NCBI RefSeq assembly: GCF_000002985.6
Contig: NC_003280.10
Coordinates: 2,232,001-2,296,000 of the forward strand
DNA length: 64,000 bases
Direction: 5' to 3'
Origin: Caenorhabditis elegans
Taxonomy: Eukaryota > Nematoda > Chromadorea > Rhabditida > Rhabditidae
Shown here: positions 39,363 to 58,921 of the stretch, in pieces
Numbering within the stretch: position 1 is the first letter of the stretch
How the letters are laid out: every line of letters starts with the position of its first letter
Translations under genes and position numbers: made by a program
Notes under the pieces: generated by a model
Databases searched by the model: none
What the model was told of the DNA's origin: nothing
Seen by the model: only the letters and a program-made list of their open reading frames with translations

Positions 39363-39864
39363 AGTAGTGATAGAGTGGCTTTTTCACCACCCCGAGGATT
39401 TTTGACCGCAGACGGTCACGAATAGTGTGTGAATCGAGAGATTCAGAGAAAGACGAGAGAGTGAGAGACTTGGTTATAGTAAGAAACTATCGATTTTTTG
39501 GGGTGTTCTTGGTCCTCTCAACCAGGGGACAGTTTTTTAACCAGGATTTTTGTGATTTGGTTGTCGATTTTTGAAAGAGCGTGCGTTTTCGAGAGATTCA
39601 GAAAAAGTCAGACAGAGCTTTTTTCGAAACTATTTTCGAAATTGGGTTACTGTAATAATTCAAATGATTATTATTAATTTCATAACATTATTTCATATTT
39701 TTTGTTTTTCCCCGGACCGGATTCGAACCCAGGACACGATTTACATGAACAGATGGCATCTTTTCCCAAAGCAACAAGAGACGATTTGCATGAATGCAAG
39801 TGTTACCTAGATTGATGAATCATAGGAAGGAGGCCCCGCGCCCCGCCCCTGGGGTTTTCAAGAA
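39363..39864 (+). repeat. Left TIR of the Maverick
   Basis: Matches the inverse complement of 58408-58921 almost throughout, from AGTAGTGATAGAGTGGC to the GC-rich inner edge 'ccccgcccctggggttttca'. The right copy has an extra ~13-bp 'actttttatttcata'-like segment. No gene lies in it. Confidence 0.95.
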
Positions 39865-39894
39865 GTTGAAAATCTGAATGATGATACATTCAAA

Positions 39895-39950
39895 GCTATT
39901 TGAAGTTTTTCGATAAAGGGTTCTCCACCCTTTATCGAAAACTTTAAAGA
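39895..39950. terminator. Perfect hairpin just inside the left TIR
   Basis: TTTTCGATAAAGGGT (39907-39921) pairs perfectly with ACCCTTTATCGAAAA (39927-39941) around a 5-nt loop. It lies about 120 bp beyond the 3' end of the major capsid gene. The flanking 'gctatttgaag' is shared with the hairpin at 58321-58358. A role in 3'-end formation or replication is inference. Confidence 0.6.
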
Positions 39951-40061
39951 GCAAGGCTTCCTTACAAACATGTTTTACATTTTATATTATTTATTCAATT
40001 ACAGACAAGGCCAAGTATTAGTTTTACATGCATTATTCCACAATCAATCAAAAGATAACAA

Positions 40062-41384
40062 TTAAACAATACTGTCAACAATAGGGTTACGCATAAAGTC
40101 TAGGGCAAATATTTGATCAAATTCGGCGTAGACGATGCAGTAGAGACCTCCTGGTGGAGTTTCCTTTTTGAAATTGAGGCGTACGCTAACGTTTGTTTGA
40201 CGAACTAGTTCGAAAAGATTATTATCCTGAGCCACAGGGCTCAACTCGAATCCAAAAATCGTGTATCCTTTAGATCTGAACATTCAAATGTCGATCGAAT
40301 TGCAGCTAAAGTTGTTTCTAGTGTGACCAAGTGTTTCCTGAAGTTGAACGTAGGCCTCCACAAACTTGTTATTCTCAAAGTCTAGATTCATTGGTCGTCC
40401 TGGAATTGTTTGACCGCAATAATCAATGTGAACGTCCTGCACGCCATATGGTTTGAAGTTGAACGGAGTTGTTCCGAATGATCCGTTGTAAGCTTCGCTT
40501 GAAACTAGACCCAGAAAGAGTCGACGAGGCATTTTACTAGTGAACAACGTATTTGCAGGGGCGTCAAACCGCCCTCCATCAATGTAGCAACTGCGAACTT
40601 GTGAGGAAATCATTGGGTATTGGATCATCTTGTGTTCAATGATTGCAGCCTCCAACTCGTTTGACAAACCATCTGTTAGATCAAACTCATTAACAAGAGC
40701 GTAAACATCAGTAACGTTGAATTTGAACTTTTGTTGACCATGATTGTAAGCCTCAATCAAAAATTCACTATTGTTTGGGTATGCAGTTAGCTTCACGTTG
40801 CACGAGTTTAGCAAAACCCGTGGTTGATTCATCAAATCGAGAGAAATGTTCGCGGCAACTTGCGTTGTACCTGTACCACATCGATTAAGGAATCCCTTAC
40901 TTGTCGGAGAGCCAATTTCATCTTCGTGGAAATATCCAGCCGCAGTGAGAGTAGAGTTTTTAATTTCTTTTCCATACATTAGTGCATTCTCAAAATATGC
41001 CTTGTAAGCATAGTTTGAAGAGTTGTGATAAGCCAGTCGCGAGTTGATGTGAAGAGAAAAGTTTTTCACAATAGAGTGAGCTATATTGTTGATTGGGGCG
41101 TAAACCAAACTATCTTTAGTGATGGGATTAGGTATATTCACAATAGCTCCGTTTTGATCGGTAATATTAAAGGTGTAGACTAGATAGGTTCGCTTGAGAT
41201 TGAGATAAGATCTTGAACTGTTGCCCAGTACAAACTCCCAAGGACCTTCGGCTTGAAACGCATTTTTCAAGTTGACAACAGTCCAACGAGAGTTTTGAAT
41301 ACAGGTTTGAGTACCGGGCATTGTGGAAAAATCTAGATCATCAACGATGACGTCATGAGATTTTGGATCCATACGGCCAATCAT
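40062..41384 (-). pseudogene. Maverick major capsid protein, interrupted by an in-frame stop
   Basis: The open frame extends from 41438 (no ATG there) to 40284. The first ATG is at 41384. After an in-frame TGA at 40286-40284 the same frame continues to 40062. The N-terminal part has the usual capsid pattern for this group: DDLDFSTMPGTQTC, then NLKRTYLVYTFNITD, NSRLAYHNSSNYAYKAYFE, FLNRCGTGTTQ and RRLFLGLVSSEAYNG. The 73-residue piece after the stop carries GYTIFGFELSP and VYAEFDQI, normal for the capsid C-terminus, so the stop is a nonsense mutation rather than a gene end. Polinton capsids are double jelly-roll proteins forming an icosahedral shell. The start overlaps the end of the upstream small gene, suggesting one transcript. 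It runs toward the left TIR. Confidence 0.88.
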
Positions 41385-41434
41385 GTTTAGAGAAAGTTGT
41401 TTCGTGATTTGGAAAGCAAATGAGGTTTGATTAC

Positions 41435-41767
41435 TCAAACACTAGTTTCTTTTATGCTTTTTCTTCTCTGACCCGAACCAGAAATTTCTTTAATTTTCTT
41501 AACGGCTACATTTTTCAAGCTTGATTTTAAATCTTTACCTTGAGCCAGTTCAGCGGTTAGTTCTTTCCCAGCACTCAAGACTTGTTTTCCAAAAGAAGAA
41601 TTAATTAGTTTCGGCAAAAGACCCATAGCAGCGCCAATAATGCCACCAAGCCCAGCTCCACGTTGATTTCCACCCCGTTGATGACGCATTCCCATGTAAG
41701 GCCCGTTACCAGGTACATTTCGACGTAATAGCAGTTTGTAATTGATTTTTGAAAGATCGACAGGCAC
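41435..41767 (-). CDS. Small Gly-rich basic Maverick protein next to the capsid gene
   Basis: 110 codons on the minus strand. VDLSKINYKLLLRRNVPGNG, a Gly-rich stretch (HQRGGNQRGAGLGGIIGA), a short hydrophobic helix and a Lys-rich C-terminus (KKIKEISGSGQRRK) match a protein regularly encoded beside the capsid gene in animal Mavericks, sometimes compared with adenovirus core proteins. No ATG is present at the 5' end: the frame opens at a GTG and runs into a minisatellite, so the original start was probably lost. The stop overlaps the capsid frame by 4 nt. Confidence 0.7.
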   Translation of the reverse strand: MPVDLSKINYKLLLRRNVPGNGPYMGMRHQRGGNQRGAGLGGIIGAAMGLLPKLINSSFGKQVLSAGKELTAELAQGKDLKSSLKNVAVKKIKEISGSGQRRKSIKETSV

Positions 41768-41777
41768 TGGCTCGGTA

Positions 41778-42085
41778 AATCGGCCCAGCTTTCCAGGGCA
41801 CTTCCCACAGCTTTCAACAACTACCCGTGGGAAAGCTGTGGAATGTGCCCTGGAGAGCTGTGGGATGTGCCCTGGAAAGCTGTGGAACGCAGATATATTT
41901 TTTCTGCGGTGTGCCGCGGAAAGCTGGCGGTGTGCCCTGGAAAGCTGGTGGTGCGCCCTGGAAAGCTGGCAGTGTGCCCTGGAAAGCTGGCAGTGTGCCC
42001 TGGAAAGCTGGCAGTGTGCCCTGGAAAGCTGGCAGTGTGCCCTGGAAAGCTGGCAGTGTGCCCTGGAAAGCTGGGAGGAAACGTC
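41778..42085. repeat. 20-21-bp minisatellite (CCCTGGAAAGCTGGCAGTGTG)
   Basis: About nine units of 'ccctggaaagctggcagtgt' with variants at the left. The same unit reappears twice at 47540-47578, beside the nested gene pair. All six frames translate into repetitive peptides, which I do not regard as genes. Confidence 0.92.
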
Positions 42086-42318
42086 TCAATTTTGAAAAAA
42101 AAATTATATGGTATCATATTTTTCACTGATCAGAATTCTTATTCATTTTCCGACGTAGAAGAAGCTCTATAACCTGATTGTGCGTAATGAAGGTTGATGA
42201 TCGGTGTAGGACACTGTAGTGGAGTCGAGCTGTGGACTTTCTGATGCTGACGAAGCGAGTTACCTGTAAGCTATTCTTGTATAGTCGCGTGCCCTGCAAG
42301 TTGATAAATACAACATAC

Positions 42319-42790
42319 CGTATTTCCTCTATTAGTTAGGCACCTCTATTAGTTTTGCATCAAAAATCACTAATCGAAAATTAGTTTTGCACTTTCTATT
42401 AGTTTTGCACCTCTAATAGTTTTGCACCTCTATTAGTTTTGCATCTAAAATCACTAATCGAAAATTAGTTTTGCACTCTCTATTAGTTTTGCACCTCTAA
42501 TAGTTTTGCACCACTTAATTTGTTACCTATTTTTAGGAATTTAAAATTTGCATAATAAAATCGTTCTAAAAATTAGGAAAACTCTTACAGACTTGGTATA
42601 ACAAGTAAAAATTGGCAAAATATGAGTACAACTCGGACAATTTTTGTGTATCAGTCGTAAAATTCGCTCATTTTGGTTCATAAGTTATTATTGAAATTGA
42701 TGATATTATGCCATAACTTAATGAAAAACATGAGAAAAAACCTGTTCAAAAATTAGTTTTGCATGCCTTACTAATAGAGGAAATACGGTA
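42319..42790. mobile_element. MITE-like element with TACCGTATTTCCTCTATTAGT ends
   Basis: TACCGTATTTCCTCTATTAGT at the left and its exact inverse complement ACTAATAGAGGAAATACGGTA at the right delimit ~470 bp. The left half repeats 'ctctattagttttgcacctc' words five or six times. No coding capacity; it lies next to the nested gene pair. Confidence 0.85.
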
Positions 42791-42951
42791 TCCGAGGACT
42801 AACCCAGGCGCAGAAACATCGATTTATTGTGAAACAACAAGGAATTCAATACGAACAACAACAAAAATAAATAACGGAACAAAAAATCTGAAATTGATAA
42901 TAACGGTTAACATGGGATTATTGAGAAGAATTTGCCATTTCCGCCGAGTCC

Positions 42952-44640
42952 TTAATATCTTCCGGTTCTTGGGCGTTTCCAAAGAAGGGAGATCGATGAT
43001 AACTAAAAAATTTTGAAATGTAATTGGAATAAAACAATTTTTGCTTACAAGTCCAAGATTTGAGATGGAGTAGCTGAATTGCATTCGGCTTTCGTTTTTT
43101 TGCTCAGCTTTGGAAAGTGGCGTACTTGGTTCCAAGACAGGTGATCCTTGCATGTGTTTCGCTCCTCGCAGTACTTCAAAGTGTTTGTGACAAGATCATA
43201 GTGATAAGCTCTAACGCTTTTTCTGAAAAAAGGCAATTAACTATCATACTATTTATTTTCTCTTTCACTCACAGAGCACGTGAAAACGCCGATTTGAAGA
43301 CCGATTTCGCATTTTCTCTCCCCTCACGTCTTCTCATAATCTCGTCGATGGGCTCAGAACAATCCAGACTTTCCAGAAATCTAAAAAAAAACAATTCATA
43401 TACACACTCAAACAAAGTTTACTTACGGATGAGTTTCATCGATTGTATCTTCAGAACCAACCAGTAGGTCTTTAGGCAAGTAGTAATCGCAAATGTCCCA
43501 GGAGAGCCCTAAACATGGGAAATTAATGTTTTATCACAAAATTGTTCAATTGTGTACCAAACAGTTGATTCATAAACGCCAGGGGAAGATCGGTGAAGTT
43601 TTTGTCGGCTTTTCCACTGGAGTTCGGCCTATATGTGAATTTCCAGACTTTGTACGGAGGATCGAACATCTCAAAATAAGATTGTTTTAAATTTTTTGGG
43701 TTGTGTTATGTATGTACTTACCGTAGCCAGAACAAGAGTGTAGAATTGAGATAATTGTCCTTTAGCAGGTGCTTTGATCAGGCTAATGTTGTTGTAAAGA
43801 ACGGTCAAATCCACCCCTGGAACATGGTCGATGGCATCAGTTTTGTAGCTTCGATGAAGGTGTTCTTTAGTGATTGACTTTAAATCGTACTGAATTCCAG
43901 TTGTTGCCGAAATGGAAGCAATTGACGCTTCAACTTCCAGTACACGTTGCTCATCTGTGCCAATCAACTTAGCCTAAAAAATGTGTCAGTTTTAAAGTAT
44001 TGAAAAGCAGTGAGTTACCATCACAAAATGGCCCATATCCATCCAATTTCTTTGTTCTTCAGTTAAATTTTCTTTTAGTGCTTTGAAGTGTTGAGAGCCA
44101 AGAATAATGGGGCGCAGTGTGACCTTACAGTATTCCTATAAAACAAAAATTAAGGATTTTAAAAAAGTTAAAAGACTCACCTCCAGTTCGACGTCTGTGA
44201 GTGTTTCGTTTTCGTAACCTTGATAAACTGCTTTTCCCATATTTAGTATGCTTCCACATCGAACAGCTTCTTTTAATTGATCTGAAAATAATTGATTCAT
44301 GATTTCCATACTAAATTTTTCATTACCGATGGCAGATAAATTAGAAGCAGGCGGATGACGCTCGAGCCGCTCCGAAATTTTCATTCTTTTCAAATTTGAA
44401 ACGCTTTCCGTAGATCGTGGTGTAAGAGGCTCCAAGACAAGCTTCTTCTTGACTATCTTATTCTGACCAGCTCTTCTCCGAGTGATGCGTGGCGTAGTTG
44501 TTGCATCAACTCCATTTTCCATCATGTCATCGTCAATCTCGTAAGGCGGGAAATCTTCCGGGCGAGGAGGCACACTCATCTAAAAACCATGATTTTATCA
44601 CGACAAATAAGACAAACAAATTTACCTCATTCGGCTCCAT
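42952..44640 (-). CDS. Multi-exon gene of unknown function inside the Maverick (gene B)
   Basis: Probable exons: 44640-44626, 44579-44181, 44135-44019, 43973-43722, 43669-43558, 43508-43427, 43380-43273, 43222-43049 and 43002-42952. Most use standard GT/TTTAG or TTTCAG sites. The N-terminus is MEPNE, then VPPRPEDFPPYEIDDDMMENG and a basic segment (PRITRRRAGQNKIVKKKL). The rest is helical, with no motif I recognise. It starts 150 bp after the stop of gene A on the same strand, so the two may be co-transcribed or belong to one transposon. Intron number is out of keeping with Maverick core genes. Confidence 0.5.
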
Positions 44641-44789
44641 GTTGACGTGAGTGTCTAAGAAATACACTTTGAGATTGGCATGAACTGGAACAAGTACTCA
44701 CGAGATCTAAAACTCGACAAAAATGAAATTAAAACAGGCTGACAGGTGTATACAAAGATAAATATTAGTATTAGTCCTTAACAAAAAAG

Positions 44790-47146
44790 TTAACAACGAG
44801 ACACAAAAAGCTTCTTGAGCAATGTGATCGAATCTTCTTGAGCAATGTGATCGACCAAAAACTGAAATATTCTCGTCGTAAACAATTTTTTCTCGTTTTT
44901 AGAGACTTACGTGTAGTTTCATTGTGTATAATAGCGGAAATGCGTCTTTAACCAATTTCCGAAGAACTGCTGAAACACGTTCGCAAGATTCACAAATGGT
45001 TTCGTCTAGATATTTGTCAGTGATCAATCGAGTCAAAAGCCAGTGTAAGTACACGAGAACTGTCCATTTTTCCCGCCTTTTTACGCAAATAAGCAACGTT
45101 GGGAGACTTTGGTCGTACATCTAAACCATATAATCATAAACCAAAGTTAGTTAGGATCAACACTACTTCTTGAATTTCTCTTCCAGTTTTATGCTTCATA
45201 CTTGTGGGATCCATAAACAGTGATGTGCTCCGTCCACTTGGAATTGATGCTGACACAAGGGCATTCTGAAATATTTCAAAAATTCAGAATGTTTTCGGAA
45301 TAACGAAGCGTACCGCCCACAGCTTTTTCTCTGCCACAGAGATTTTAGCTCCGACGTAATATCCATTAGACAGAAGTTGTTTCAACATGTCCTTCATAGT
45401 TCCTTCCTGTATATTATGAAGCGTATCATATCCGTCATCCCAAGGATATGGCAGTGGTGATGAGAGCAGTCCTGAATAATATCAGAATATATTGTGTTTC
45501 AGTAACTCACAGCTCATTCGCTTCTGTACTTCAAATCTAAAACTTACTTTCTGACATGTAGGACGAAGAATACAGTTTGGAAGAACCCTCTTCGGAAGAC
45601 CAACAAACTTTGCTGCCGTTTTTCGTTCTTGCGCGAATTCCGTACACATCACAACGAGAACATCCAGAATAAGTATTCCAGGCGGGAACTCCATGAATTT
45701 TTTGACTGGCCTGAATACATTTTCCATAACAATTAACATCGGAGATACTGTTTAATTTCAGAAAATAATCAAACTACAGTCCCAATTATTAAAACTTACA
45801 GCCATATCAAGAACGGATTCATATAGTTGTAGTCGTACTCTGTGAGTTACACCGTCCCGAACCACAACGATAGGATTTTCGGTGGTGGCTTCTATTTCCA
45901 AAATCATCCTCTGAAGAAGCGACAACAGGTCTTGCCTCTTGCAATTTGGAGTGAGCATTAACGAAGCAAGCATCACGTTTTGTGGTCTGTGCATTTCATT
46001 ACTGGAGGCATCAGAAACAACGTCATTTGTTGCCAAGAACACAGGCCAAATTTCGCTTCTGAAATAGTCAGATTAATTGGACGATTGATGGAAATTTGAG
46101 CTTGCCTAGAATTTCCACGTTTTGAAAAACCATCCGTGTTTAATGTCAGAAACAAGGTTTTTAAATCAGGATACTTGTTTTCAGATTCCTTTTTTGTGTG
46201 CAAATATTTCGGTGTTTCCGAAATACTCGAGCATAGTGAGGGCTGGGATAGAGCAGAAATCTAAAATTTCTGATTCTGATTGGTCGTTATAGTTTGTCAT
46301 TTTTGATTACCTCAAGTTTCTTGTCTAGAGCTCCACTGTTCAACAAGTCTTTCATTTGAGATCGAATGCTGAATGTAACAATTGTTTTTGATTCGGAAAC
46401 GTTCTTTTGGCACATTGAAAATCGCTGGCATTCGGAGTTTGTGCACAACTTGGAATTATTCAAAGTTGATTGACATACAGCACAAAAACTGTAGAGCCTC
46501 TTGTCATGATCAATCCATAAATCAATTGTATTGAACACTTCATATCTCTGTAAACAATTAATTAAAAAAAAATTTTTTTGATGTATGACTCTCACCTGAA
46601 TACTAGGAAACTTTCGAAGAAGTTTACAAATAGTGAAGATATCAGCAACTAGGGAATGACTTAGTTGGTTGGATGCCACAACTCCGGCAATATAATTCAC
46701 AGCTTCATTTCTATCTAAAGTTATCAATAATTTTTTTTGTAGAAAAAATATTATAAACTAACCAAAAGCATCACATTCATTAAAATTTTTTAAATTTTCG
46801 ATCGATTCCGGAATTTTTTCAACACGATCAGCAAAACCATCACAACTTGACGCCGGTCCTTCTTCTCTTTCATTCCGAATATTTTTTTTGATGAAGCTTT
46901 CTTTGCATGACGACATCAGTGACAATGAGAAGCGCCTCTCTGAAAATTGAATAGATAGTACTTATAAAATTCGAAACTTTACCTGTTGCTTTTGATATAT
47001 CCCATCTGCTTTGTACCGCTTGCAAAACGATATGCTTTCTGTAACAAAAATGGTATTATTGTTGCATCTATCAAAACTCAAAGGTACCTTTTTCTAGTTT
47101 TGCCTCTTACAATTGAATTAATATTTTCCCGATTTGACTTGGTCAT
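44790..47146 (-). CDS. DDE (tnp2-like) transposase-like gene nested in the Maverick (gene A)
   Basis: Probable exons: 47146-47088, 47038-46983, 46939-46763, 46714-46596, 46547-46311, 46260-~46105, 46058-45800, 45747-45511, 45471-45314, 45265-45164, 45120-44911 and 44861-44790. ATG 47146 follows an acceptor-like TTTCAG. Features: a Cys cluster (FCAVCQSTLNNSKLCTNSEC), then TLFLTLNTDGF and EIWPVFLATND, the NTDG...IWP block of animal tnp2-like transposases. NVMLASLMLTPNCKR, RRVRLQ-like and ESVLDMA blocks follow. The C-terminal part has KRREKWTVLVYLHWLLTRLI and DAFPLLYTMKLHFLVDH. The junction between the exon ending near 46105 and 46058 cannot be made in phase with simple splice sites, so the gene may be broken there. 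Assignment is by motif pattern only. Confidence 0.5.
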
Positions 47147-47309
47147 TTCTTCGCCTGAAATTACTTCATTATACGAAAATTATAAACACAAAAAAAATAG
47201 AAATAACAAGAATATCAAAAATACCAAAATAAATTACATAAGTTTGGAGGAATATTAATCATATGTAAATAATTTCAATACAATTTTATTTAAATTCACA
47301 AGAAATTGG

Positions 47310-47339
47310 CACGCGACGCTCTTGTCTAAGCGTCGCGTG
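47310..47339. other. Perfect 11-bp hairpin CACGCGACGCT/AGCGTCGCGTG
   Basis: 11-bp arms at 47310-47320 and 47329-47339 around an 8-nt loop. It is the only GC-rich palindrome in the AT-rich stretch between gene A and the protease. Confidence 0.8.
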
Positions 47340-47374
47340 TTCAAACCGTTCAAAAAGAGCCACAAAATGTGGAG

Positions 47375-47480
47375 AAGTACAGCAGAGTGCAGCAGAGTGC
47401 AGCAGAGTGCAGCAGAGTGCAGCGAAGTACAGCAGTGTGCAGCAGAGTGCAGCAAAGGGCGGCAAGGGGCAGCAAGGGAT
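47375..47480 (+). repeat. 10-bp AGCAGAGTGC minisatellite
   Basis: About ten units of 'agcagagtgc' and variants (agcgaagtac, agcaaagggc). The two CCCTGGAAAGC units shared with 41778-42085 follow at 47540-47578. Confidence 0.9.
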
Positions 47481-47600
47481 GGCGAAGCGCAGCCGAGTGC
47501 AGCCGGGAATGTGTGGAATTTGACTAGAAAAAGACCTAATGTGCCCTAGAAAGCTGGCAATGTGCCCTGGAAAGCCGGCTCGACTTGCCGAGGGAGTCAT

Positions 47601-47607: not shown

Positions 47608-47645
47608 CAAGTTAAAATTCTGCAACTTTAATCCTATTTATACAC

Positions 47646-48645: not shown

Positions 48646-50699
48646 TTAAATCTTTTTAAAGTGCAATACAATAACAGTGCTTCCCCAATTAAAGTTTATT
48701 GGTTCGGCAAATTCAGACAACAATTCAATCTTTATGGAATCTATAGTGTTATTCATAATAGGAAGATAACGGGGGTGAGGAATAGTATGATGAATCATTT
48801 CACCATACACTCCTTTACAGGGAATTACAGACAGTAGCGAATTTTTAGAATCTCCCACGATAATAGGGTCTACAATATCACAATAAGGTAGATGGTGCTA
48901 ACGTTACCAAAGTAATCAATGTTGCTAGGTGCCAAGCTGGATTCTCTAACAATTGTATCGTGAAATCCAAGAAAATATGCACAAGACTTTTCAAATTCCA
49001 CAAATAAAATGTTTGAATCTAAAAAATCAATGGAAACTCTTCCGTCCTTTTCTTCAAATTGCAGATGTTCTGAAGAGTTTTCAAAATGTGAAACTTTTAT
49101 CCTTGATAGGATTCGTTCAAACGAAAGTTTCAATTCGTCATAAATGTTTCTATCACTTGGCTTTTGGAAAATTTTCAAAGCGACATCATGGTACTCTGAA
49201 GATGCTCGAACTGCTTCCTTTTCAATTGCTTCCGATTCCTTAACTTTTGACACAATCTTGTCCCTTTCCTGCTTTTCAAGCTCGTTTACTTTTTCGATAA
49301 TTTTTTTAGCCTCCTGACTAGCGTAAACCTTTCCAGGTATGTTGACAATCTGTTTAGGATCAATCGTAACTTTTGATTTTTCAGCTTTTGTATCTTTTTT
49401 CGATTTAGCCTCTTCTCTAGCCTTTGCTTTATCCTCTTCCCTGGCTCTTTCGTCTTCTTTGTCTTTAGCTTCCAAAGCTTGTAAACGTTCATGTCTTTCT
49501 TGAGCCTCTCTGTGACGTTCAATGTGTTCACGTTCTTTTTGCGTGGCACGTTCAAGATTTTCCTTCTTCTGCTTTTCCTCTAGTTCACGTTTTTCCTTCT
49601 CCAAAGCTTTAGCTCTTGCCTCAGCTTGCCGATGTCGTTCAATGTGTTCACGACGCTCTTTTTCCACACGTTCAAGATTTTCCTTCTTCTGCTTTTCCTC
49701 TAGTTCACGTTTTTCCTTCTCCAAAGCTTTAGCTCTTGCCTCAGCTTGCCGATGTCGTTCAATGTGTTCACGACGCTCTTTTTCCACACGTTCAAGATTT
49801 TCCTTCTTCTGCTTTTCCTCTTGTTCGCGTTTTTCCTTTTCCAAAGCTTCAGCTCTTGCCTCAGCTTGCCGATGTCGTTCAATGTGATCGCTGCGATCTT
49901 TTTGCGTGGCACGTTCACGATCTTCCTTCTTCATCTTTTCCTCTTGTTCACGTTTTTCCTTTTCCAATGCTTCAGCTTGCTTATGCCGTGCTATGTGAGC
50001 ATCCCGCTCGGCTTTTTGCGCATCACGACGTTTCTCCTCATTTTCCTCCGCCTTTTTTTGTGTCTCAATATATTTTTTCCGTGCTTCATCATGGTATTTT
50101 TGATCGTCTTGCGCATTCTGTTCAGCCTTTTTATGAGTGTCTAGATGCTTCTCACGCTGTTCGTCTTTATCAGTCCGAACCTTTCTAGCAAATTCTTCGG
50201 CCTTTTTATGAGTAGCCAAATGTTTTTCACGTTGTTTATTCTTTTCTTCTTTTTCTCGAGCAATCCTCTCCTCCTCGTCCTTTTTGGCTTTTGCCTCCAG
50301 TTCCCGAACCTTGTTGATGATTACGTCTCTTTCGATTAATGGTTCGGCCGACGATTTTGGTCGCTTTACCTGCTCATTTTCCAAAATCAATGGCGCACCA
50401 CGCTTCATTCGAGGCTTTTGAACACCGTTTAGTGAATTTACCACGTGAGAAAGGTTGTCATACTGTGCCGCAGGAAAGGTGACATTGATTGGTTCTCTAT
50501 TTTTGAAATGAATCCAATAGTTGAGAGGTCGACCAACGTTTACAAACGAATATGGGTAAATAATATCTGTTACCGCTACAGAGTATTCGTCTTTTTCCAA
50601 ATGCAAAACTTGCGGCAGACGCGTAACATAACGAGAAGATGTATTTTCAAATTGAGCATTTTTGACGGAAGACGGTAGAGTTACATAAAAATCGTTCAT
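48646..50699 (-). pseudogene. Maverick minor capsid-type protein with coiled-coil insertion, frameshifted near the 3' end
   Basis: The frame from ATG 50699 is open for 609 codons to 48870. A different frame then continues, 48858-48646. The first ~95 residues match the conserved start of a Polinton structural protein (FENTSSRYVTRLPQV, then YSVAVTDIIYPYSFVNVGRP). About 350 residues of Lys/Glu/Arg-rich coiled coil follow, made of ~35-residue repeats containing EHIERHRQAEAR and KEKRELEEKQKKE. The C-terminal part returns to conserved sequence (SIDFLDSNILFVEFE, CAYFLGFHDTIV). The 48858-48646 frame carries the usual end of this protein (VGDSKNSLLSVIPCKG, PHPRYLPIMNN, FNWGSTVIVLHF), so a one-base shift near 48890 breaks the gene. 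It starts divergently from the glycoprotein gene, 72 bp apart. Confidence 0.8.
49500..49900 (-). repeat. 120-bp tandem repeats in the coiled-coil gene
   Basis: Blocks starting near 49500, 49620, 49740 and 49860 repeat 'tcagcttgccgatgtcgttc' and 'ttccttcttctgcttttcct' with a 120-bp period (40 codons). The two central blocks are identical over more than 100 bp, indicating recent expansion. Confidence 0.9.
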
Positions 50700-50746: not shown

Positions 50747-50771
50747 AACTGAAAACTGCTTTCAATCAAAA

Positions 50772-51545
50772 ATGTTTTTGATTTTACCACTTCTACCACT
50801 ACTACCACTAGCATCAAGTGTCTCTGTTTTCACAAAGACGGTTCCCTCCAGACTATTAGATGGTGATTTGTCAAATTTACCATTTGAAACAAATTTATTT
50901 GTAAACTTTTGCGGATACAATAAGAATGGCGAACCAAACTTGAGATGGTTTTATAAAATGGAAGATTCAATAATTGATGATGGACTACGTGTTCAGGTTG
51001 CCAACGACAAATGCAAATTTGAAATTATTGGTTCGGACGATATGCTAATGCAGTGTGACGGTAGACTTTTTCGCGTACGGGGTAAAACAGTTACACGGTT
51101 TTATGACTATGCAGAACTCTTTGCATTCGATCATGTTCAAAAGCAATTTTATGTTTATCTACACGGGGGCATACGCCATGTTAGGCCTGGAAATTCCACC
51201 ATCACACTAAAATCGATTTCAAATGTTCGCGATTTTAACGTTGTTGACGGAGTTTTCACCGTTTTATTTCAAAATGGTACAATAAAATACAACAACAAGG
51301 TGCTGGCACAGGTGGATCCAAAGTCTTATTCGAGATTACCAATTTATGCTGCTCCAGATTACGTGGCTACTCCTAAACTTGATAAGGAAGATTATTCTAA
51401 TATAATTTCGCTAATATTTTTCATAATTGGATCAATAACCGTCTTGGTGTTGGAACAATGCGGGCGTCAGTCTGCTCGAGTATATCGTCGGAAATCGCAA
51501 GTTTCAATACCACTCGAAGAAGAACAGCCGCATTGCTCACTATAA
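50772..51545 (+). CDS. Maverick type I membrane glycoprotein, unknown family
   Basis: 257 aa, intact. An N-terminal signal peptide (MFLILPLLPLLPLASS) precedes a ~190-residue ectodomain with a few Cys residues and potential N-glycosylation sites (GNST, NGT). A single membrane helix follows (IISLIFFIIGSITVLVLE), then a ~30-residue basic tail. This is the layout of a virion envelope or cell-surface protein. Nematode Mavericks are known to have acquired membrane-fusion glycoproteins; this ORF is much shorter than such fusogens, so it could be a partner, attachment or unrelated protein. I recognise no family. Its stop codon overlaps the TATA box of the ATPase gene. Confidence 0.65.
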   Translation: MFLILPLLPLLPLASSVSVFTKTVPSRLLDGDLSNLPFETNLFVNFCGYNKNGEPNLRWFYKMEDSIIDDGLRVQVANDKCKFEIIGSDDMLMQCDGRLFRVRGKTVTRFYDYAELFAFDHVQKQFYVYLHGGIRHVRPGNSTITLKSISNVRDFNVVDGVFTVLFQNGTIKYNNKVLAQVDPKSYSRLPIYAAPDYVATPKLDKEDYSNIISLIFFIIGSITVLVLEQCGRQSARVYRRKSQVSIPLEEEQPHCSL

Positions 51546-51548
51546 ATA
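51541..51548 (+). promoter_or_regulatory. TATA box of the ATPase gene, overlapping the upstream stop
   Basis: TATAAATA at 51541-51548 includes the glycoprotein stop codon (51543-51545) and lies 33 nt before the ATPase ATG at 51581. Confidence 0.6.
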
Positions 51549-52258
51549 TACTGACATTTTCAATATCACCACACCACACCATGTCCATGTCCATGTCTCG
51601 ATCAAACGGTTCGTCACCACGACTAGGATTTCAATTTCGTTTTCCATCTCAGACTACAATCATTGGCGCCACACAATCTGGTAAAACTACACTATTGAGA
51701 AAAATTTTGGAAAATTGTTCAGAGACGTTTGAAAAGCCAATTGACAATATATTTTGGTTTTATGGCGTAGATACACCCACTCGGCAATTCGTATCGTACA
51801 TTCCTCGCATTTTCCTCGTACATTTAGAAGGAAGTCCGGAATGTACGACAAAACTGTAAGTGTAAAAAGGAGACACGACCAATATACGAGGAACATACGA
51901 CAAGATTAGGAGAAAAACAAAATGTAATGTTGCCGCGCTCATATCTCGTCGCGCATTCATCGCACATTGTGGCTCGCTGTTCTTGCACGTCGTACATTCC
52001 TCGTATGTTTCCAAAGTACCACTGTTGAGAATTGAACTTGCCTGTTTACTGTCCTAGTTGGTTTCTAAATCAAACTTCTTACCTGTTGATCCATGACGGT
52101 CGCGAGATACGAAGTTTATAATTGGTTATTTAAAGAGGATGCGCTCAGCTGGTGAGAGTTTCAGTTCAATCAGATATTATTGTCTGTTTGATTTGAAAAT
52201 GTTGAAGTGTTTCTTGAAGCAGAATATTTATGAAACTTAGTAGAATTATTCACAAGTA

Positions 52259-53318
52259 TTAGGTTGGCAGGAAAGTTCTGTCCTATTTTTCAATCATTTA
52301 TTTCTTGAAGCAAACTCAAACAAAAATCAGTTACATGCTGCATCATGATCAACAATGTACTTCCAACGTTGAGATTACTTGTGGATTCCCTGCCCTAAAA
52401 TCCAGCGGGCAGGATTTCAAAGTATTGCATTAGTGCCACTTTGAGATTTTTTTCTAATTGTGAAGGTTCTACTTTGAAGTACACGAGTCACATCAGAGAA
52501 AAGCCAATAATCACTAGAAGCAATGTCAGGAGAATTTGGTTGCTGATAGAATCATCCATCCATATTTTGCCAGCTCCTGCTTCACTTGTTTTTCAACATG
52601 TGGTTGGGCGTTATTATGTTGGGAATATACTTTCTTATCCCTCAAGGCTGAACGATCGACTGCTTTATTCAAATTCTGTAGTTGTCTTGAGTGGGGTTCT
52701 CCGGTAATAATCTCCCCCTCACAAGTCAGGATGGTAACAGCTCCCAGTTGAGGGGACATCCACTTGCCGATCAAACAGAGAGAATACTTTTTTTCGGGTG
52801 AAGATCGGGTTTCGGGACATCCTGTGGGGCTTCTCCTTCTCCAATCCACAGGGCTTGCCTACCGCCGTGGAGAGTGAGAAGGCTTTATGAAACACCAGTT
52901 CGGCGGTCAAGGATGGAACGGGTCAAATAATGAGCTACTAATCGAGCAATTTCAAGCCATCTGCAAAGGAGACTATGATGAACCCCAAACGTGCTTGCAA
53001 GCTCACTTGTAGTTTTAAATGGATCCGATTCAACACTGGCATTTAGTGCAATCAAATGTAGCTCACACGGTCTTTCAGGGCATTTCTTTTCATTCAAAGA
53101 AAAGTCGCTACTTCCGAAACGATCGAACCATCTTTGTATGATTTTATACGATGGAGAAAAATAAACTTTCATCAAAAGAGTCTTGAATCCTTCATTATGG
53201 TGTTGATTACTGCAGACTTTTTTCCTGCTTATCAATCTCTAGGAGTGAATAAACACCGAAATTGATCTGCAGCCCACAATGACAAAACAAATAGGGCAAA
53301 ACTTTCTTGTCAACCTAA
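52259..53318 (-). mobile_element. Mariner transposon nested in the TIR element
   Basis: The 1060-bp element has TIRs TTAGGTTGGCAGGAAAGTT... and the inverse complement of TTAGGTTGACAAGAAAGTT..., 30 bp with about five mismatches. It is flanked by TA on each side (52257-52258 and 53319-53320), the mariner target duplication. The minus strand encodes transposase fragments. Confidence 0.93.
52526..53235 (-). pseudogene. Degenerate mariner transposase
   Basis: 53235-52885 encodes the helix-turn-helix part (IIQRWFDRFGSSDFSLNEK, LASTFGVHHS). 52849-52526 encodes the catalytic part (VDWRRRSPTGCPE-like, YSQHNNAQPHVEKQVKQEL, KYGWMIL). The frames are shifted between them, and the DNARPH catalytic motif reads NNAQPH, so the second catalytic Asp is lost. 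Inactive. Confidence 0.9.
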
Positions 53319-54045
53319 TATTAGCAAGTATAATTTATCCTATTTCATTCTGTCGAGAAAATAGTTGAAAAAGTTGAAAAATGGTGGAAAATATCCAGTA
53401 AAACGAGCTGCAGAGACCTCAATATACGCACGTTTCAAGCCTTTGTCGTACATTCCTCGTAGGTTCCAGAGGATATACGAGGAATGTACGACTAGCGCCC
53501 ACTATTTGGCTTGAGAGGCGCAACATGCGAGGAATTTACGAGGAAAATGCGAGGAATTTACGATACGAATTGCCGAGCAGTATACCAAGACACTTGCACA
53601 ACTTTCATGCAATCGAAGGATTACCAGACGTTGATCTTTTAAAGCAACACAAACATCAGAATAACATTCTAGTCTGTGACGATTTGATGAACTTTTTTGC
53701 ACGAGATAAAAAATCCCTCCATCTGCTCAACGACTTGTTTTGTCTTTATGCTCATCATCTCAATTGTGCAATTTTCAATTTGGTCCAGTCTGCGTTTACA
53801 CTCCCGCCAATAACCCGAAACAACAGTACCTACATTATTTTGATGCGAAACTTGTCGGACGCCTCTCAAATCAAACACCTACTAATGCAGCAATTTGGAG
53901 ACGTATGGAGAGGAGCCTTCGAAGCATACCAGGATGTAATGTCGAAACCATATCAGGCGCTATTAATTAACAACGACCCATTATCTCTTCCTACTATGCG
54001 TATTTTATCAAACTTTACAAACGAGTATCCTACAGCCAATGTCCC

Positions 54046-54054
54046 TATATAAAT
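54046..54054 (+). promoter_or_regulatory. TATA box overlapping the ATPase stop
   Basis: TATATAAAT at 54046-54054 covers the ATPase stop codon (54050-54052) and lies 35 nt before the next ATG at 54089. Confidence 0.55.
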
Positions 54055-54088
54055 GATTTATAAATTGTATTTGATCTTTTGCTAACAA

Positions 54089-54400
54089 ATGGCTGCCCAT
54101 TTAATTGTTCACACTGATTTCTTGCATTCTGTTTTGAAACGTAATCGTATTGCTATTCGAGATGCTTCGAGCAAAGAAATAAATATTCTAGTTGAAATTG
54201 TGTACAACATGCTTAATTCTAAAAATATTCCGTTAAATCTAGCAGAATATCAAATTTTGCAGCCGATACACGATCAACTAACTACCATTTCACGTACCAA
54301 TGATGTCAACAATGCGAGGAAATTACTATTTAAGCTTTCAAAAAAGCAATTGGCTACGCTTGTTATTCCTTCACTTATTGCAACAAATCTCTGGAAATGA
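54089..54400 (+). CDS. Small conserved Maverick structural-cluster protein
   Basis: 103 aa, mostly helical (LVEIVYNMLNSKNIPLN, then ARKLLFKLSKKQLATLVIPS). Short proteins with this pattern sit directly after the ATPase in many animal Polintons; function unknown. Its TGA overlaps the start of the next gene as ATGA (54397-54400), so the pair is probably translated from one mRNA. Confidence 0.65.
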   Translation: MAAHLIVHTDFLHSVLKRNRIAIRDASSKEINILVEIVYNMLNSKNIPLNLAEYQILQPIHDQLTTISRTNDVNNARKLLFKLSKKQLATLVIPSLIATNLWK

Positions 54401-55452
54401 AGTTGATTCGCAAATATCACATGATACCCTACGAGAATGGGTCTGCATATGAATCTGCCAAGCGTTTTTTATCCGCATCAGATGTTGATCCAACTACAAA
54501 GTGCCGTTTTTACCAAGATGTATTATACCGCATCCGAAACCACCCTGAACTACCAATTGTCACTGACGAATTATTTGATGTTGTTCAAGAAAATTTACAA
54601 CAACAGAATGACAATCAAAAGAGAAATGTGAAGCTAGAGAGACGTAATTTAAAATATGAAGCCATTCCTGAAAAGAGAGAATCATATCAAGAAAAAGATT
54701 ATAGGAATCCTCCTGTTTATAAAGCGGAAAATGAACAATTGTTTGATGACGTGCCGAACCACAATGATGGAATAAATCATTTAAAGCCCCTCAAAAACGT
54801 TTACATCAAAGAAGAGCCCGAGGATGAGGATTATCATATGGAATACGAAAAAATTCCAAAAATAAATATGGAGCAAAATAATGTAAATGAACTTTTTACG
54901 GAACCACAAAAAAATACGCCTGGAAAAATGAAAACGTCCAAAAATGAAAAGAAAGACGGAACTCTCAGTAGACCTAAAAAGAAGAGCGTGGTGAAAGTAG
55001 AAGCAAAAACAGAATCCGATCAAGAGATTGAAGAACCCGATGAAGATATGCAAGCTGCTCCACCGAGGAAACCAGAGGAAAAAACTGAGGAAATCACACC
55101 AGTTTCAATTAAAAAACGATCGTTTCAGCAAGACGCCACAAAGAATCTAAACAAGAGACAAAAGTTTGATCTCAAGAGAGGAAAGAGCATGAATAACGTG
55201 AAACCAAGAAAACTTTATAAAATGCAGCTGGAAGAGGATGAGGAAGATGAAGAGCCGATGGTTGATGAGACGCCACAAAACACTGAGATTTCCATTAAAA
55301 AGAGACCAGTTCAACAGGATTCCACAAAAAACTTAAACAAGAGGCAGAAATTTGATTTGAAAAGAAGAAAGAATATGAGTAGAGTGAGGCCTCCATTTTT
55401 TTTGTTTTTCCAAATTTCGAAGTGTCCTGGCGACCGTAGGTGCGGCGTGTGA
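54397..55452 (+). CDS. Maverick structural-cluster protein with charged repetitive tail
   Basis: 351 aa. The N-terminal ~65 residues (MKLIRKYHMIPYENG, AKRFLSASDVDPTTKCRFYQD, ELPIVTDELFDVV) have the pattern of a short protein common in Polinton morphogenesis clusters. The rest is disordered, acidic and Lys-rich. It contains two copies of a ~33-residue unit with ATKNLNKRQKFDLKRGK and STKNLNKRQKFDLKRRK, separated by an acidic block. The final ~20 codons (RVRPPFFLFFQISKCPG) read antisense into the truncated PolB gene, so the native C-terminus was probably lost in the same deletion. Confidence 0.65.
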   Translation: MKLIRKYHMIPYENGSAYESAKRFLSASDVDPTTKCRFYQDVLYRIRNHPELPIVTDELFDVVQENLQQQNDNQKRNVKLERRNLKYEAIPEKRESYQEKDYRNPPVYKAENEQLFDDVPNHNDGINHLKPLKNVYIKEEPEDEDYHMEYEKIPKINMEQNNVNELFTEPQKNTPGKMKTSKNEKKDGTLSRPKKKSVVKVEAKTESDQEIEEPDEDMQAAPPRKPEEKTEEITPVSIKKRSFQQDATKNLNKRQKFDLKRGKSMNNVKPRKLYKMQLEEDEEDEEPMVDETPQNTEISIKKRPVQQDSTKNLNKRQKFDLKRRKNMSRVRPPFFLFFQISKCPGDRRCGV

Positions 55453-56821
55453 GCATTCGTGAGGACCGTTTATTCTTTGACGACAGATTTTACAAAAAGC
55501 GTTGTCGTGGCATTTGTGTACAGTTTTGGAATATGAATCTTTACGATGTATGAATCCACATTTTTTGCATTTTTCATATCGTTCGCAAAATGACAAGGAT
55601 AGTTTAGACGGCTTTACTAAATGAGATTCATAACATGATTCACTTTGAAACACAATGTTGCATTTTTCACAAATCTTGCCTACTCCATTCTTCTCGCAAT
55701 TGGTGACACCACATCTCCGACATTTGGCCCCGCATGTTTGGTAATGTCGGCGACCAGAGTATTGATTACATTTGAAACAAAATCCGGTATTGACGTAATC
55801 AATCCTCGGTACAAAAAAATCAAAGTGGTTGTCGACATACAGAAGTGGAATGAATCCTTTTGCACCTTTATTTGCTTCAAAAATTTTCGCCGTAGCCTTT
55901 GAACCGCTTTTCAGCCCCCACACACAAATGTTATGCAGATGGTCTGCAATTTTCTGTAAATCATCGAATCCATGTTCTTCGCGGTCGCAATCCAGCCCAA
56001 CAGATGTTGCCAAACTCTTTGCAAGTTGTAGTTGTTTTCCTTTTCGGTGATCCAGACATTTCTGAAAGTAAAAATATAGATGAATCATTTAAAAATTAAA
56101 AAAACTTACGTCTTGTCTCGTCAGGTTTCTAAAATCCTTTGCTTCTTGTCCTTTTGTTTTTGTCGATTTCGAATCATACCAAAGTTTACCAATGACTATT
56201 GCCTTCAAAAGACAATGAGTGAATCCAACAACGTTTGGGTATTTTGACCCGAATAACATTAGCCTATCTTTAGAAATTTCTACTGATCCCTTTCCGCGAA
56301 CTGATTCGTCCTTTGTGAACACTCTCATTGTTAACGTGAATGTTCCATCGTCAACGCATAGTCCCTTCTTTGACTGCATTTGTTCGGCAATTATATTCAT
56401 CAGAGTATATCCGTCGGCCATCTCGTATGTCTGGTGCATTATCCAAAATCCATCATCTTCCTCGTAAGCTTCATGTTTCAGATTCAACCAATATTCCGTA
56501 GTTTCTAGATTACCACCAGCCTTTTGAATCATTGAACGAATGAAAATATCAAACAGCTTTCCAATGTTTTTGTCAAGAGTTTTGTTTCTAGGTAGATTTT
56601 CAAGGTTCCGGAAGCTGAATCGCGTTGGTTTGGTTTTGACAGATTCTTTAGATGCACGTTTCAAATCCACACAATCTTCAAATTTTGTGAATTTTCAAAA
56701 TGCCGTAGTTCCTTGTCCGTTGGAAAAGTCTTGGATGCTGAAAAAAATATATTAAAAACTTTTACAATTAAAAAAACTCACGTTTTGTTTTTACATCCTT
56801 ACCGTCGCTTTTCGTTGCCAT
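55333..56821 (-). pseudogene. N-terminal fragment of Maverick protein-primed DNA polymerase B
   Basis: Exon-like blocks 56821-56782 (ATG), 56737-56110 and 56061-55333. The middle block has TRFSFRNLENLPRNKTLDK and ADGYTLMNIIAEQMQSKKG; the last has CVWGLKSGSKATAKIFEA, FFVPRIDYVNTGFC and a Cys-rich zinc region (CFKCNQYSGRRHYQTCG, CEKCNIVFQSESCYESH). These are the N-terminal features of Polinton PolB. The 3'-5' exonuclease and polymerase domains are absent: the frame ends at 55333 inside the convergent gene. A frame break also lies near 56675-56690. A TATAAATA box (56926-56919, minus strand) precedes the ATG by ~98 nt. Confidence 0.82.
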
Positions 56822-56939
56822 CCTGAATACTTTTTAGATGTGTGAACTTTCGCTTGGGTTTTTACAACCAGTGTGTGGTTGCTCGCAAAAATGATCAACT
56901 TTCTTCACTGTGCTTGGGTATTTATACCACTAGGAAAGT

Positions 56940-57835
56940 GGTTAGGGGCGTGTTTTTGAATGGAAAACCTATAGTACCGCTGGGACCACACCATCTGTCT
57001 CCAATTGTTGCGAAATAGTCTCATTGCGAAATTTGTTTGAAGCTCATTCTATGACCATGAAAATCTTGCTAGAAGCTCCTCCCTTTTTTCTAAATCTCAC
57101 GTCATTTGCGTTTTTGAAACGTTCTCTCGGTCGGGGACACTTGTTTTATGTCTTCATTTTCAAATTTCACTTATCCGGAAATCTAAACTGGTTAGGGGCG
57201 TATTTTTGAATGGAAAACCTATGGTTCCGCTGGGAATATAGATTTTTGTATATTTCTAAAAGATTTTTGTATAAGATTACGACACATCGGATCCTACTCC
57301 CAAATTCTGTAAATCCTTGTTGCAACCAATCTGTATATTTCTAAAGATTTTTGTATAAGATTACGACATCGGCTCCTACTCCCAAATGCTATGTTAACCA
57401 ATTTGCATGAAACATGTAGATTTCTAAAGATTTCGACATCGGCTCCTCTTTGACAGCTGTCATGCGTCGTGCACGTTTTCGCGCATGTCTTCCGAATCAC
57501 TGCCATCTGCTCGATAGAGGGGCGGGTGGTTTCTAGAGTATAAATGGAGCTTCTTTTCGGATTTTCTTTTACTGATACAATTTCACAAGTCTCCTTCCCT
57601 TTTGAATGATCGCCTTTGCCCACTGGGACCTGTCACCAATTGTTGCGAAATAGTCTCATTGCGAAATAGTTTCATTGCGAAATTTGTTGAAGCTCATTCT
57701 ATGACCATGAAAATCTTGCTAGAAGCTCCGCCCTTTTTTCCAAATCTCACGTCATTTGCGTTTTGAAACGTTATCTCGGTCGGTGACACTTGTTTCATGT
57801 CTTCATTTTCAAATTTCACTTATCCGGACCCTAGT
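56940..57835 (+). repeat. Duplicated upstream region of the zinc-ribbon gene
   Basis: 57003-57172 and 57640-57823 share 'attgttgcgaaatagtctca' through 'cttcattttcaaatttcact'. The first copy even contains the ATG and first codons of the downstream gene before diverging. The 45-bp stretch 'ggttaggggcg(t)gtttttgaa' to 'ccgctggga' also occurs twice (56940 and 57189), as does 'aagattacgaca(ca)tcgg' (57272 and 57357). A TATAAAT lies at 57539-57545. Confidence 0.85.
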
Positions 57836-58243
57836 CCCGGAAATGTGTTTTGGAACTTTAACGATAATCCCCAACTCCTTTCACCCCAAAATTTACAATT
57901 TTCACCGTTAGAAAATGTTCCCAATGATCATATTCCTGATATTCATATTCCTATCGATCCCGAACCAGTGTGTGTAAAGAAGAAAAAGAAAAACGTACCA
58001 GCAAAAACGAATACGACCAAATCTGGAAAGCCGCTTGAGAAAAAAGGTAATTTTTAAAAAGTTTTTTTCAATTACTATGAATAATTATTTTTAATTTCAG
58101 ATCCTGAGTTTGCTTTCCGGAAAATGGAACCACTCGTCGCAATAATATTTTGTAAGACTTGTCAGGACGGTGCACAATATGATGGATCAACTTTGAAAAT
58201 TGACGTTTGTAAGAAATGCCGTAAAAAATATTGGAAATTATAA
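57797..58243 (+). CDS. Small zinc-ribbon protein near the right Maverick end
   Basis: Exons 57797-58046 and 58101-58243 join in phase to 130 aa. The N-terminal part is Pro/Asn/Asp-rich (DPSPGNVFWNFNDNPQ, HIPDIHIPIDPEP), followed by a Lys-rich patch (KKKKKNVPAK). The C-terminal 45 residues hold two Cys pairs (FCKTCQDGAQYDG and VCKKCRKKYWK), a compact zinc ribbon. I do not recognise the family; a transcription-factor role is possible. It ends ~80 bp before the hairpin inside the right TIR. Confidence 0.65.
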
Positions 58244-58320
58244 AATTTGATTGTTGTTGTCTTATTAATTTAATCAACTGAATAAATATTTACAAAAAAA
58301 AGTCTTGTTTGAAGAAACCT

Positions 58321-58358
58321 GCTATTTGAAGTTTTCGAAAACGAAAACTTCAAATAGC
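58321..58358. terminator. Perfect 17-bp hairpin just inside the right TIR
   Basis: GCTATTTGAAGTTTTCG (58321-58337) pairs fully with CGAAAACTTCAAATAGC (58342-58358) around an AAAA loop. It shares its outer arm with the left-end hairpin (39895-39941). It is positioned after the last gene running toward the TIR, so 3'-end formation is one possible role. Confidence 0.65.
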
Positions 58359-58407
58359 ACAGGTAACATTAATTGAAGTAACGTTCAAATGTTCAACTTA
58401 AACTCTT

Positions 58408-58921
58408 GAAACCCCCAGGGGCGGGGCGTGGGGGGCCTCCTTCCTATGATTCATCAATCTAGGTAACACTTGCATTCATGCAAATCGTCTCTTGTTGCTT
58501 TGGGAAAAGATGCCATCTGTTCATGTAAATCGTGTCCTGGGTTCGAATCCGGTCCGGGGAAAAACAAAAATTATGAAATAAAAAGTTATGAAATAATGTT
58601 ATGAAATTAATAATAATCATTTGAATTATTACAGAAACCCAATTTCGAAAATAGTTTCGAAAAAAGCTCTGTCTGACTTTCTCTAAATCTCTCGAAAACG
58701 CACGCTATTTCAAAAATCGACAATCAAATCACAAAAATCCTGGTTAAAAAACTGTCCCCTGGTTGAGAGGACCAAGAACACCCCAAAAAATCGATAGTTT
58801 CTTACTATAACCAAGTCTCTCACTCTCTCGTCTTTCTCTGAATCTCTCGATTCACACACTATTCGTGACCGTCTGCGGTCAAAAATCCTCGGGGTGGTGA
58901 AAAAGCCACTCTATCACTACT
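58408..58921 (-). repeat. Right TIR of the Maverick
   Basis: Inverse complement of 39363-39864, ending CTCTATCACTACT at 58921. It contains the 12-bp 'gggttcgaatcc' and 'atgcaaat' words also present in the left copy. Confidence 0.95.

What the first reader, a model, noticed from the sequence alone, without database searches (positions are those of the whole stretch)
39363..58921. Complete-ended 19.6-kb Maverick/Polinton with perfect 6-bp TSD
Seen: ~500-bp TIRs at both ends beginning AGTAGTGATAG, exact TTCGGG duplications outside them, and a full set of Polinton morphogenesis genes between. The boundaries are base-precise. Known: Mavericks are virus-like transposons, and nematode ones have been linked to horizontal gene transfer. 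This copy is a good dated specimen, since TIR divergence is low while its genes have decayed.
Basis: partly seen in the sequence, partly recalled or inferred. Interest (0 to 1): 0.92.

Follow-up and report, generated by a model that had tools for sequence, protein, structure and literature searches.

The report
Broken Maverick in a worm chromosome
A virus-like Maverick transposon sits on chromosome II of the worm C. elegans with both ends and a 6-bp duplicated footprint intact, but it has no integrase gene and only the first part of its polymerase gene, and 39% of its length is other transposons sitting inside it, so it can likely no longer move; its capsid-type genes bear marks of selection that likely date from before it landed.

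Summary
The window is C. elegans chromosome II, 2,232,001-2,296,000. The TIRs differ at 6 of 471 sites plus a 15-bp gap, and TTCGGG is exact on both sides. The reading needs correction. (1) Only about 11.9 of 19.6 kb is Maverick: 41771-47592 and 51780-53577 are nested transposon-like units, each absent from the matching place in a second copy (chromosome IV), each with a 2-bp duplication. (2) No integrase was found, and the polymerase gene stops after its N-terminal part; none of the five TIR-matching loci in this genome has a DNA_pol_B_2 match. (3) The capsid gene has an in-frame stop, the penton gene a frame break, the packaging ATPase a 1.8-kb insert. (4) Against copies on III and IV, 13 of 13 gene-piece comparisons have dN/dS 0.02-0.26 with dS 0.11-0.37, far above the TIR divergence of 0.013: the copies likely diverged while working and broke late. 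(5) The six TIR differences cluster within 138 bp (P about 0.009), so TIR dating is rough. By-product: the penton carries a charged, repeat-built insert, present in 12 of 12 homologues found yet nearly unalignable between species. A defective member of a known kind.

The parts
39357..39362 (.). target-site duplication TTCGGG, left
39363..39863 (+). left terminal inverted repeat
40065..41441 (-). major capsid protein gene (K09F6.5), in-frame stop at 40284-40286; the last 73 codons follow in the same frame
   Evidence: the name rests on weak Pfam matches of single members among 19 homologues and on recall
41438..41770 (-). small protein resembling adenovirus protein VI (label recalled)
   Evidence: 91% to the chromosome IV copy
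41771..47592 (.). nested transposon-like unit 1 (5.8 kb), duplication GG, ends CTCGGTAA/CTCGGCAA; the IV copy is uninterrupted here
42308..42792 (.). MITE-like palindromic repeat inside unit 1, matched at 39 other places (only 40 of 278 candidates scored)
43048..46757 (-). multi-piece gene of unit 1, transposase-like by recalled motifs; collinear homologue at II:2.02 Mb; single copy at DNA level
   Evidence: no convincing Pfam match
47634..48095 (+). cysteine-protease-like gene (label recalled)
   Evidence: 94% to the IV copy, dN/dS 0.13; no Pfam match
48649..50699 (-). penton-like minor capsid gene with a frame break near 48885-48897 (label recalled)
49194..50408 (-). 405-codon charged insert of the penton, with 120-bp tandem repeats at 49547-49977
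50772..51542 (+). 257-aa protein with hydrophobic N-terminus and a C-terminal helix that looks membrane-spanning; open frame
51439..51779 (+). packaging ATPase, 5' part with P-loop
51780..53577 (.). nested palindromic unit 2 (1.8 kb), duplication CA, ends CTCGGCAA; III and IV copies are uninterrupted here
52259..53318 (-). mariner inside unit 2, TA duplication, ends TTAGGTTG, transposase pieces in separate frames
53578..54049 (+). packaging ATPase, 3' part (sub-threshold Pox_A32 match)
54086..54397 (+). small gene conserved in III and IV copies, role unknown
54334..55391 (+). core-protein-like gene (label recalled); homology to III and IV copies stops at about 55391
55384..56694 (-). N-terminal part of a family B (protein-primed type) DNA polymerase gene, two exons; polymerase domain missing
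57797..58404 (+). region with two stretches homologous to the downstream flank of the integrase gene in the III copy
58404..58921 (-). right terminal inverted repeat
58922..58927 (.). target-site duplication TTCGGG, right

Best explanation
This is a Maverick/Polinton insertion on C. elegans chromosome II with intact TIRs and an exact TTCGGG duplication, likely laid down by a Maverick integrase and likely immobile now because its integrase gene and polymerase domain are missing. Shown: ends, duplication, gene pieces, missing parts, two nested units (one with a MITE-like repeat, one with a mariner), a stop in the capsid gene, a frame break in the penton gene, an insert in the ATPase. Shown: against copies on chromosomes III and IV the gene pieces have dN/dS 0.02-0.26 and dS 0.11-0.37, while the two TIRs of this copy differ by 0.013. 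Inferred: distinct, functioning Maverick lineages existed before these insertions, and each copy is a late landing. Inferred mechanism (from established knowledge of polintons, not tested here): protein-primed copying of a linear DNA keeps the two TIRs alike, integrase joins it at a 6-bp stagger, then nested transposons and small lesions accumulate. Whether integrase and polymerase domain were lost before or after landing is open, and so is whether the nested units came before or after.
For: Ends and duplication. Own-genome search with the TIR: 15 matches that fall at five loci, this one on II and others on III, IV, I and V (8 of 8 candidates scored); the III copy has its own exact AGAGTT duplication and TIRs with 5 differences in 541 sites. 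Integrase with rve and chromo domains in the III and IV copies but no tblastn match of the III integrase in the window at E<=0.01, while it matches the IV copy at 98%. 0 of 150 stop-to-stop pieces of 50 aa or more match rve or DNA_pol_B_2 at E<=0.01. Genome-wide DNA_pol_B_2: 5 matches, 0 in the five TIR-matching loci. The N-terminal polymerase pieces match V:19.42 Mb just upstream of a DNA_pol_B_2 match. Nested units absent from the IV copy, unit 2 also from III. 13 of 13 comparisons of this copy with III or IV have dN/dS under 0.27.
Against: The capsid, protease, penton and core names rest largely on recall; Pfam gave no match for the capsid and protease pieces, and the penton model was too poor to match anything. 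dS differs between genes of one pair (0.11 to 0.37 for II against III), so the copies may be mosaics. The six TIR differences are clustered, so 0.013 may underestimate age if the TIRs were partly homogenised. Nei-Gojobori counts on short pieces are noisy; one III-IV comparison (core gene) has dN/dS 0.49. Unit 1 has no second copy at DNA level, unusual for an active transposon.
Confidence: 0.9

Rival explanations
1. A complete, autonomous Maverick whose 19.6 kb is its natural genome.
For: Both TIRs and the duplication are intact; the length falls in the usual range for the family (recalled).
Against: No integrase, no polymerase domain, 7.6 kb of nested units, three broken genes.
Confidence: 0.02
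2. The genes were kept by the host (domesticated capsid or membrane protein), which explains low dN/dS.
For: The 257-aa membrane-type protein is open in the II, III and IV copies; two capsid-like proteins are annotated in C. elegans.
Against: The capsid, penton and ATPase genes of this copy are broken; low dN/dS is seen in 13 of 13 comparisons spread over 9 gene pieces, as expected of a working element rather than of one retained gene.
Confidence: 0.05
3. Integrase and polymerase domain were already missing when this copy landed, so it was carried in by enzymes of another element.
For: The III copy, complete-ended with its own duplication, shows no match to polymerase, penton or protease; III and IV, whose left flanks differ, share the same arrangement from TIR through integrase over about 5 kb at 96% with no polymerase match.
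Against: In this copy the losses can as well postdate landing; the ancestral position of the polymerase gene is unknown; the IV copy has no right TIR match, so its other end is unseen.
Confidence: 0.25
4. The gene at 43.0-46.8 kb is host cargo captured by the Maverick.
For: At DNA level 43000-47250 has no second match in the genome (1 of 1 candidates scored); at protein level one piece has one other match, II:2.02 Mb, and 9 pieces are collinear there.
Against: It lies within 41771-47592, a unit with inverted ends and a 2-bp duplication that is absent from the IV copy; nested unit 2 has the same ends.
Confidence: 0.05

Closest known systems
Maverick copies on C. elegans III:7,959,266-7,966,577 (F54H12.2 capsid gene) and IV from 14,838,113
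   Same: TIR start, gene order of the shared part, genes alike at 89-94% of DNA in the main blocks
   Different: They keep an integrase; III shows no penton, protease or polymerase match; neither has nested unit 2, and IV does not have unit 1 (that place is deleted in III)
Caenorhabditis polintons/Mavericks in print (C. briggsae polinton 1 in PMC11071308; cargo-carrying Mavericks in the meeting report PMC10680173; passages read)
   Same: Protein-primed polymerase, integrase and capsid genes as a kind
   Different: This copy has lost integrase and polymerase domain; no wosp or krma gene was searched for, and the seven Pfam families matched by the 150 pieces include no protease or kinase
Adintoviruses/Eupolintoviridae (PMC11071296, passages read)
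   Same: Penton with a large insert in the middle of the protein
   Different: Here the insert is a low-complexity, charged, tandem-repeat stretch, not a compact domain; whether it sits in the same loop is untested

Membership tests
Maverick/Polinton | long TIRs beginning AG with 6-bp target duplication | tested here: met
   also in the III copy
Maverick/Polinton | retroviral-type integrase (rve, here with chromo domain) | tested here: not met
   no match in this copy, present in sister copies III and IV; hence filed as a defective derivative by descent, not as a working Maverick
[quoted passage not shown]
   N-terminal part present, polymerase domain not found
Maverick/Polinton | FtsK/A32-type packaging ATPase | tested here: inconclusive
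   only sub-threshold Pfam matches (AAA, FtsK, Pox_A32) in this copy and the sister copies (best Pox_A32 E 0.00033); interrupted here
Maverick/Polinton | double jelly-roll major capsid protein | tested here: inconclusive
   among 19 homologues 1 matches Capsid_N (E 0.0015) and 1 DJR-like domain (E 0.01); no PDB sequence match at E<=1; not folded
Maverick/Polinton | single jelly-roll penton | tested here: inconclusive
   12 homologues with conserved ends, but the model had mean pLDDT 60 and no viral match at E<=0.001
Maverick/Polinton | adenovirus-type cysteine protease | tested here: inconclusive
   frame under selection, no Pfam match (and sister copy); name recalled
CMC/Mirage-type transposon (nested units 1 and 2) | 2-bp target duplication with inverted ends | tested here: met
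   GG and CA, ends CTCGGYAA; that this defines Mirage is recalled
CMC/Mirage-type transposon (nested units 1 and 2) | superfamily transposase domain | tested here: inconclusive
   no transposase match in the unit 1 pieces scanned

The most novel reading that the evidence does not exclude
Nematode Mavericks build virions whose five-fold vertices carry a long charged helical arm, made of tandem repeats and rebuilt afresh in each lineage, which serves as the fast-changing host-contact part of the capsid; the chromosome II and IV copies of C. elegans preserve two versions of it. Support: an insert of 168-370 residues between conserved halves in 12 of 12 homologues found, 19% mean identity there against 67% and 58% on either side, dN/dS 0.25 (0.16-0.38) between the II and IV copies so it is kept as protein, and helices predicted through it (low confidence).
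Probability: 0.25. Interest if true: 0.65.

Novelty: new member of a known kind. Interest (0 to 1): 0.42.

Why it matters
C. elegans is the best-studied worm, and this locus with its sisters on III and IV gives a within-species comparison: capsid-type genes that diverged under selection, then landed and broke at different points. That makes two questions testable: how often working Mavericks reached the C. elegans lineage, and whether polymerase-less derivatives were spread by others. The variable penton insert is a candidate for the part that meets the host.

Tried and rejected
Host cargo in 42-47 kb: judged unlikely, the gene lies in a nested unit, although that unit's gene region is single-copy at DNA level. 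Gene hunting by Pfam: the 150 pieces gave seven weakly matched families, one of them a mariner transposase fragment. Relatives in viral contigs for capsid, membrane-type protein and polymerase piece: none in 3 of 3 scans. Membrane-type protein fold: best model pLDDT 53; many of the 50 Foldseek rows shown are WD40 or hemopexin-like propellers, but 0 of 906 matches reach E<=0.001, so only a hint. Penton fold: 0 of 97 matches at E<=0.001 in the viral library; in the PDB only two weak sequence matches to DDRGK domain-containing protein 1. tRNA gene in the TIR: a Pol III B-box-like GGDTTCGAACC stands in 5 of 5 aligned TIRs (B-box consensus recalled), but ARAGORN and Rfam find no tRNA. Capsid tree of 15 rows, chosen from 32 returned: species interleave in two well-supported pairs, but 7 of 12 inner branches are open, so no claim on transfer. 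Programmed frameshift in the penton: considered because a preprint suggests such sites in some adintovirus pentons (PMC11071296, passages read), judged unlikely since the IV copy has one open frame. PMC10748475 (nematode polintons, seen as a reference in PMC11071308) and PMC1450207 are not held. Searches for K09F6/F54H12/W04A8 gene names (4 papers) and for polinton/Caenorhabditis/penton (20 of 194 listed) showed no title that describes this copy; listings only, and the main nematode papers are not held, so novelty of the copy is not claimed. C. elegans structural-variant paper PMC12239620: searched for Maverick and Polinton, 0 occurrences.
Full report
Where it is. The capsid-like protein at 40287-41441 (-) matches C. 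elegans K09F6.5 at 100% over 88% of the query and F54H12.2 at 99% over 90%.

The ends. TIRs of about 500 bp begin AGTAGTGATAGAGTGGC at 39363 and, inverted, at 58921; TTCGGG is exact on both sides. Over the first 471 aligned bases there are 6 substitutions, at TIR positions 198, 215, 237, 241, 287 and 336, and a 15-bp gap in the same stretch; six random positions fall within 138 bp with P about 0.009. The outer 197 bases are identical. With a mutation rate near 2.7e-9 per site per generation (recalled) 6/471 would be about 2.4 million generations, but the clustering shows that a uniform clock does not describe these TIRs well, so this is only an order of magnitude.

What is inside. Against the chromosome IV copy (L002), window bases 41770 and 47593 are neighbours, and 51779 and 53578 are neighbours. 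So 41771-47592 (5,822 bp) and 51780-53577 (1,798 bp) are insertions, with GG and CA duplicated and the same kind of ends, CTCGGYAA. The first holds a multi-piece gene whose homologue at II:2.02 Mb is collinear (33-56% identity in 9 pieces) and a palindromic repeat matched at 39 other places, a lower bound since 40 of 278 candidates were scored; its other DNA, 43000-47250, has no second match. The second holds a 1,060-bp mariner with TA ends. What is left is 11,939 bp of Maverick.

Genes and lesions. In order from the left: capsid gene with an in-frame stop; a small protein-VI-like gene; protease-like gene; penton-like gene, whose last 79 residues lie in another frame than the first 570; a 257-aa membrane-type protein, open; packaging ATPase split by nested unit 2; a small conserved gene; a core-like gene that breaks off at about 55391; the N-terminal part of a polymerase gene in two exons with GT...AG borders. 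The polymerase label rests on homology to V:19,422,753-19,423,542 (33-36% in pieces), which lies directly upstream of DNA_pol_B_2 matches at V:19,423,921-19,425,654. No rve or DNA_pol_B_2 match was found among 150 pieces of 50 aa or more at E<=0.01. As a control, the same rve model finds integrases in the III and IV copies, whose proteins show rve and chromo domains; tblastn of the III integrase finds the IV copy at 98% and nothing in the window. Where III and IV have integrase between the core gene and the TIR, this copy has the polymerase piece; homology to the III copy resumes with 63 bp at 57797 and more firmly at 58107.

The family in this genome. TIR matches fall at five loci: II (this), III (both TIRs, AGAGTT duplicated exactly, 7.3 kb, TIRs differ at 5 of 541 sites), IV (left TIR only), I (a TIR and the end of a capsid gene), V:18.71 (TIR pieces). 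Of 15 rve matches genome-wide 2 lie in these loci (III, IV); of 5 DNA_pol_B_2 matches none does. So no close copy in this assembly shows a recognisable polymerase domain.

Selection before landing. Nei-Gojobori counts on 17 pairwise comparisons of 9 gene pieces: for the 13 that involve this copy dN/dS is 0.02-0.26 and dS 0.11-0.37; for the 4 between III and IV dN/dS is 0.02-0.49 (0.49 for the core gene) and dS 0.04-0.15. The TIR divergences within copies are 0.013 and 0.009. Inference: most of the divergence between copies arose while the genes were in use, before each copy landed. Against a simple tale: dS varies between genes of one pair, which suggests mosaic ancestry or noise, and the TIRs may have been homogenised.

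The penton insert. A search with residues 1-100 of the penton, admitting proteins of about 220-700 aa, returned 12 proteins at E<=0.01 among 19 candidates, all 12 named as Caenorhabditis. All 12 have an insert (168-370 residues) between conserved halves, and the window has 405; two pairs among the 12 are 98% alike, so there are ten distinct kinds. Mean pairwise identity among the 12 is 67% in the N part, 58% in the C part, 19% in the insert; charged residues make up 23-63% of it against 19-24% of the flanks (13 rows). Between the II and IV copies the insert has dN/dS 0.25 (bootstrap 0.16-0.38), the N part 0.12, the C part 0.10: variable, but kept as protein; codon alignment inside repeats is uncertain. 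The model shows helices through most of residues 122-397 and strands on either side, at low confidence, and matches nothing in the viral library at E<=0.001. A preprint describes DE-loop inserts as typical of most adintovirus pentons (PMC11071296, passages read); whether ours is the same loop is untested.

Compared with the known. Polintons combine integrase, protein-primed polymerase, protease, ATPase and jelly-roll capsid proteins (PMC4028283 and PMC11071308, passages read). Nematode Mavericks with a putative fusogen and cargo genes appear in a meeting report (PMC10680173, passage read). The 257-aa membrane-type protein had two hits in the protein search, one being itself, plus copies on III, IV and a 42% relative on V; whether it is related to that fusogen was not tested.

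Verdict. The object is a defective, internally deleted and twice-invaded Maverick of a known kind; its value is comparative.

Noticed in passing
49194-50408: Penton insert: charged, repeat-built, present in 12 of 12 homologues found but nearly unalignable between species, under purifying selection between the II and IV copies.
   Followed up: yes
39719-39729 and 58540-58550: Pol III B-box-like GGATTCGAACC in the TIRs, kept in 5 of 5 TIRs compared although the TIRs differ widely; no tRNA found.
   Followed up: partly
50772-51542: Open 257-aa membrane-type protein, beta-rich model with propeller-like hints; only one sub-threshold Pfam match.
   Followed up: partly
L001 1021-5966 and L002 731-5695: III and IV copies share an arrangement without polymerase match at different sites, hinting at spread of a polymerase-less derivative.
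   Followed up: partly
L008 545-1998 and 8001-8679: V:19.42 Mb holds two inverted copies of a divergent polymerase N-terminal part about 6 kb apart.
   Followed up: no
23995-26865 and 30205-33097: Inverted duplication of 2.9 kb at 85% identity in the host flank, with long open frames on both arms.
   Followed up: no
57008-57179 and 57659-57828: Direct repeat of about 170 bp, 95% alike, between the polymerase piece and the region homologous to the integrase flank.
   Followed up: no
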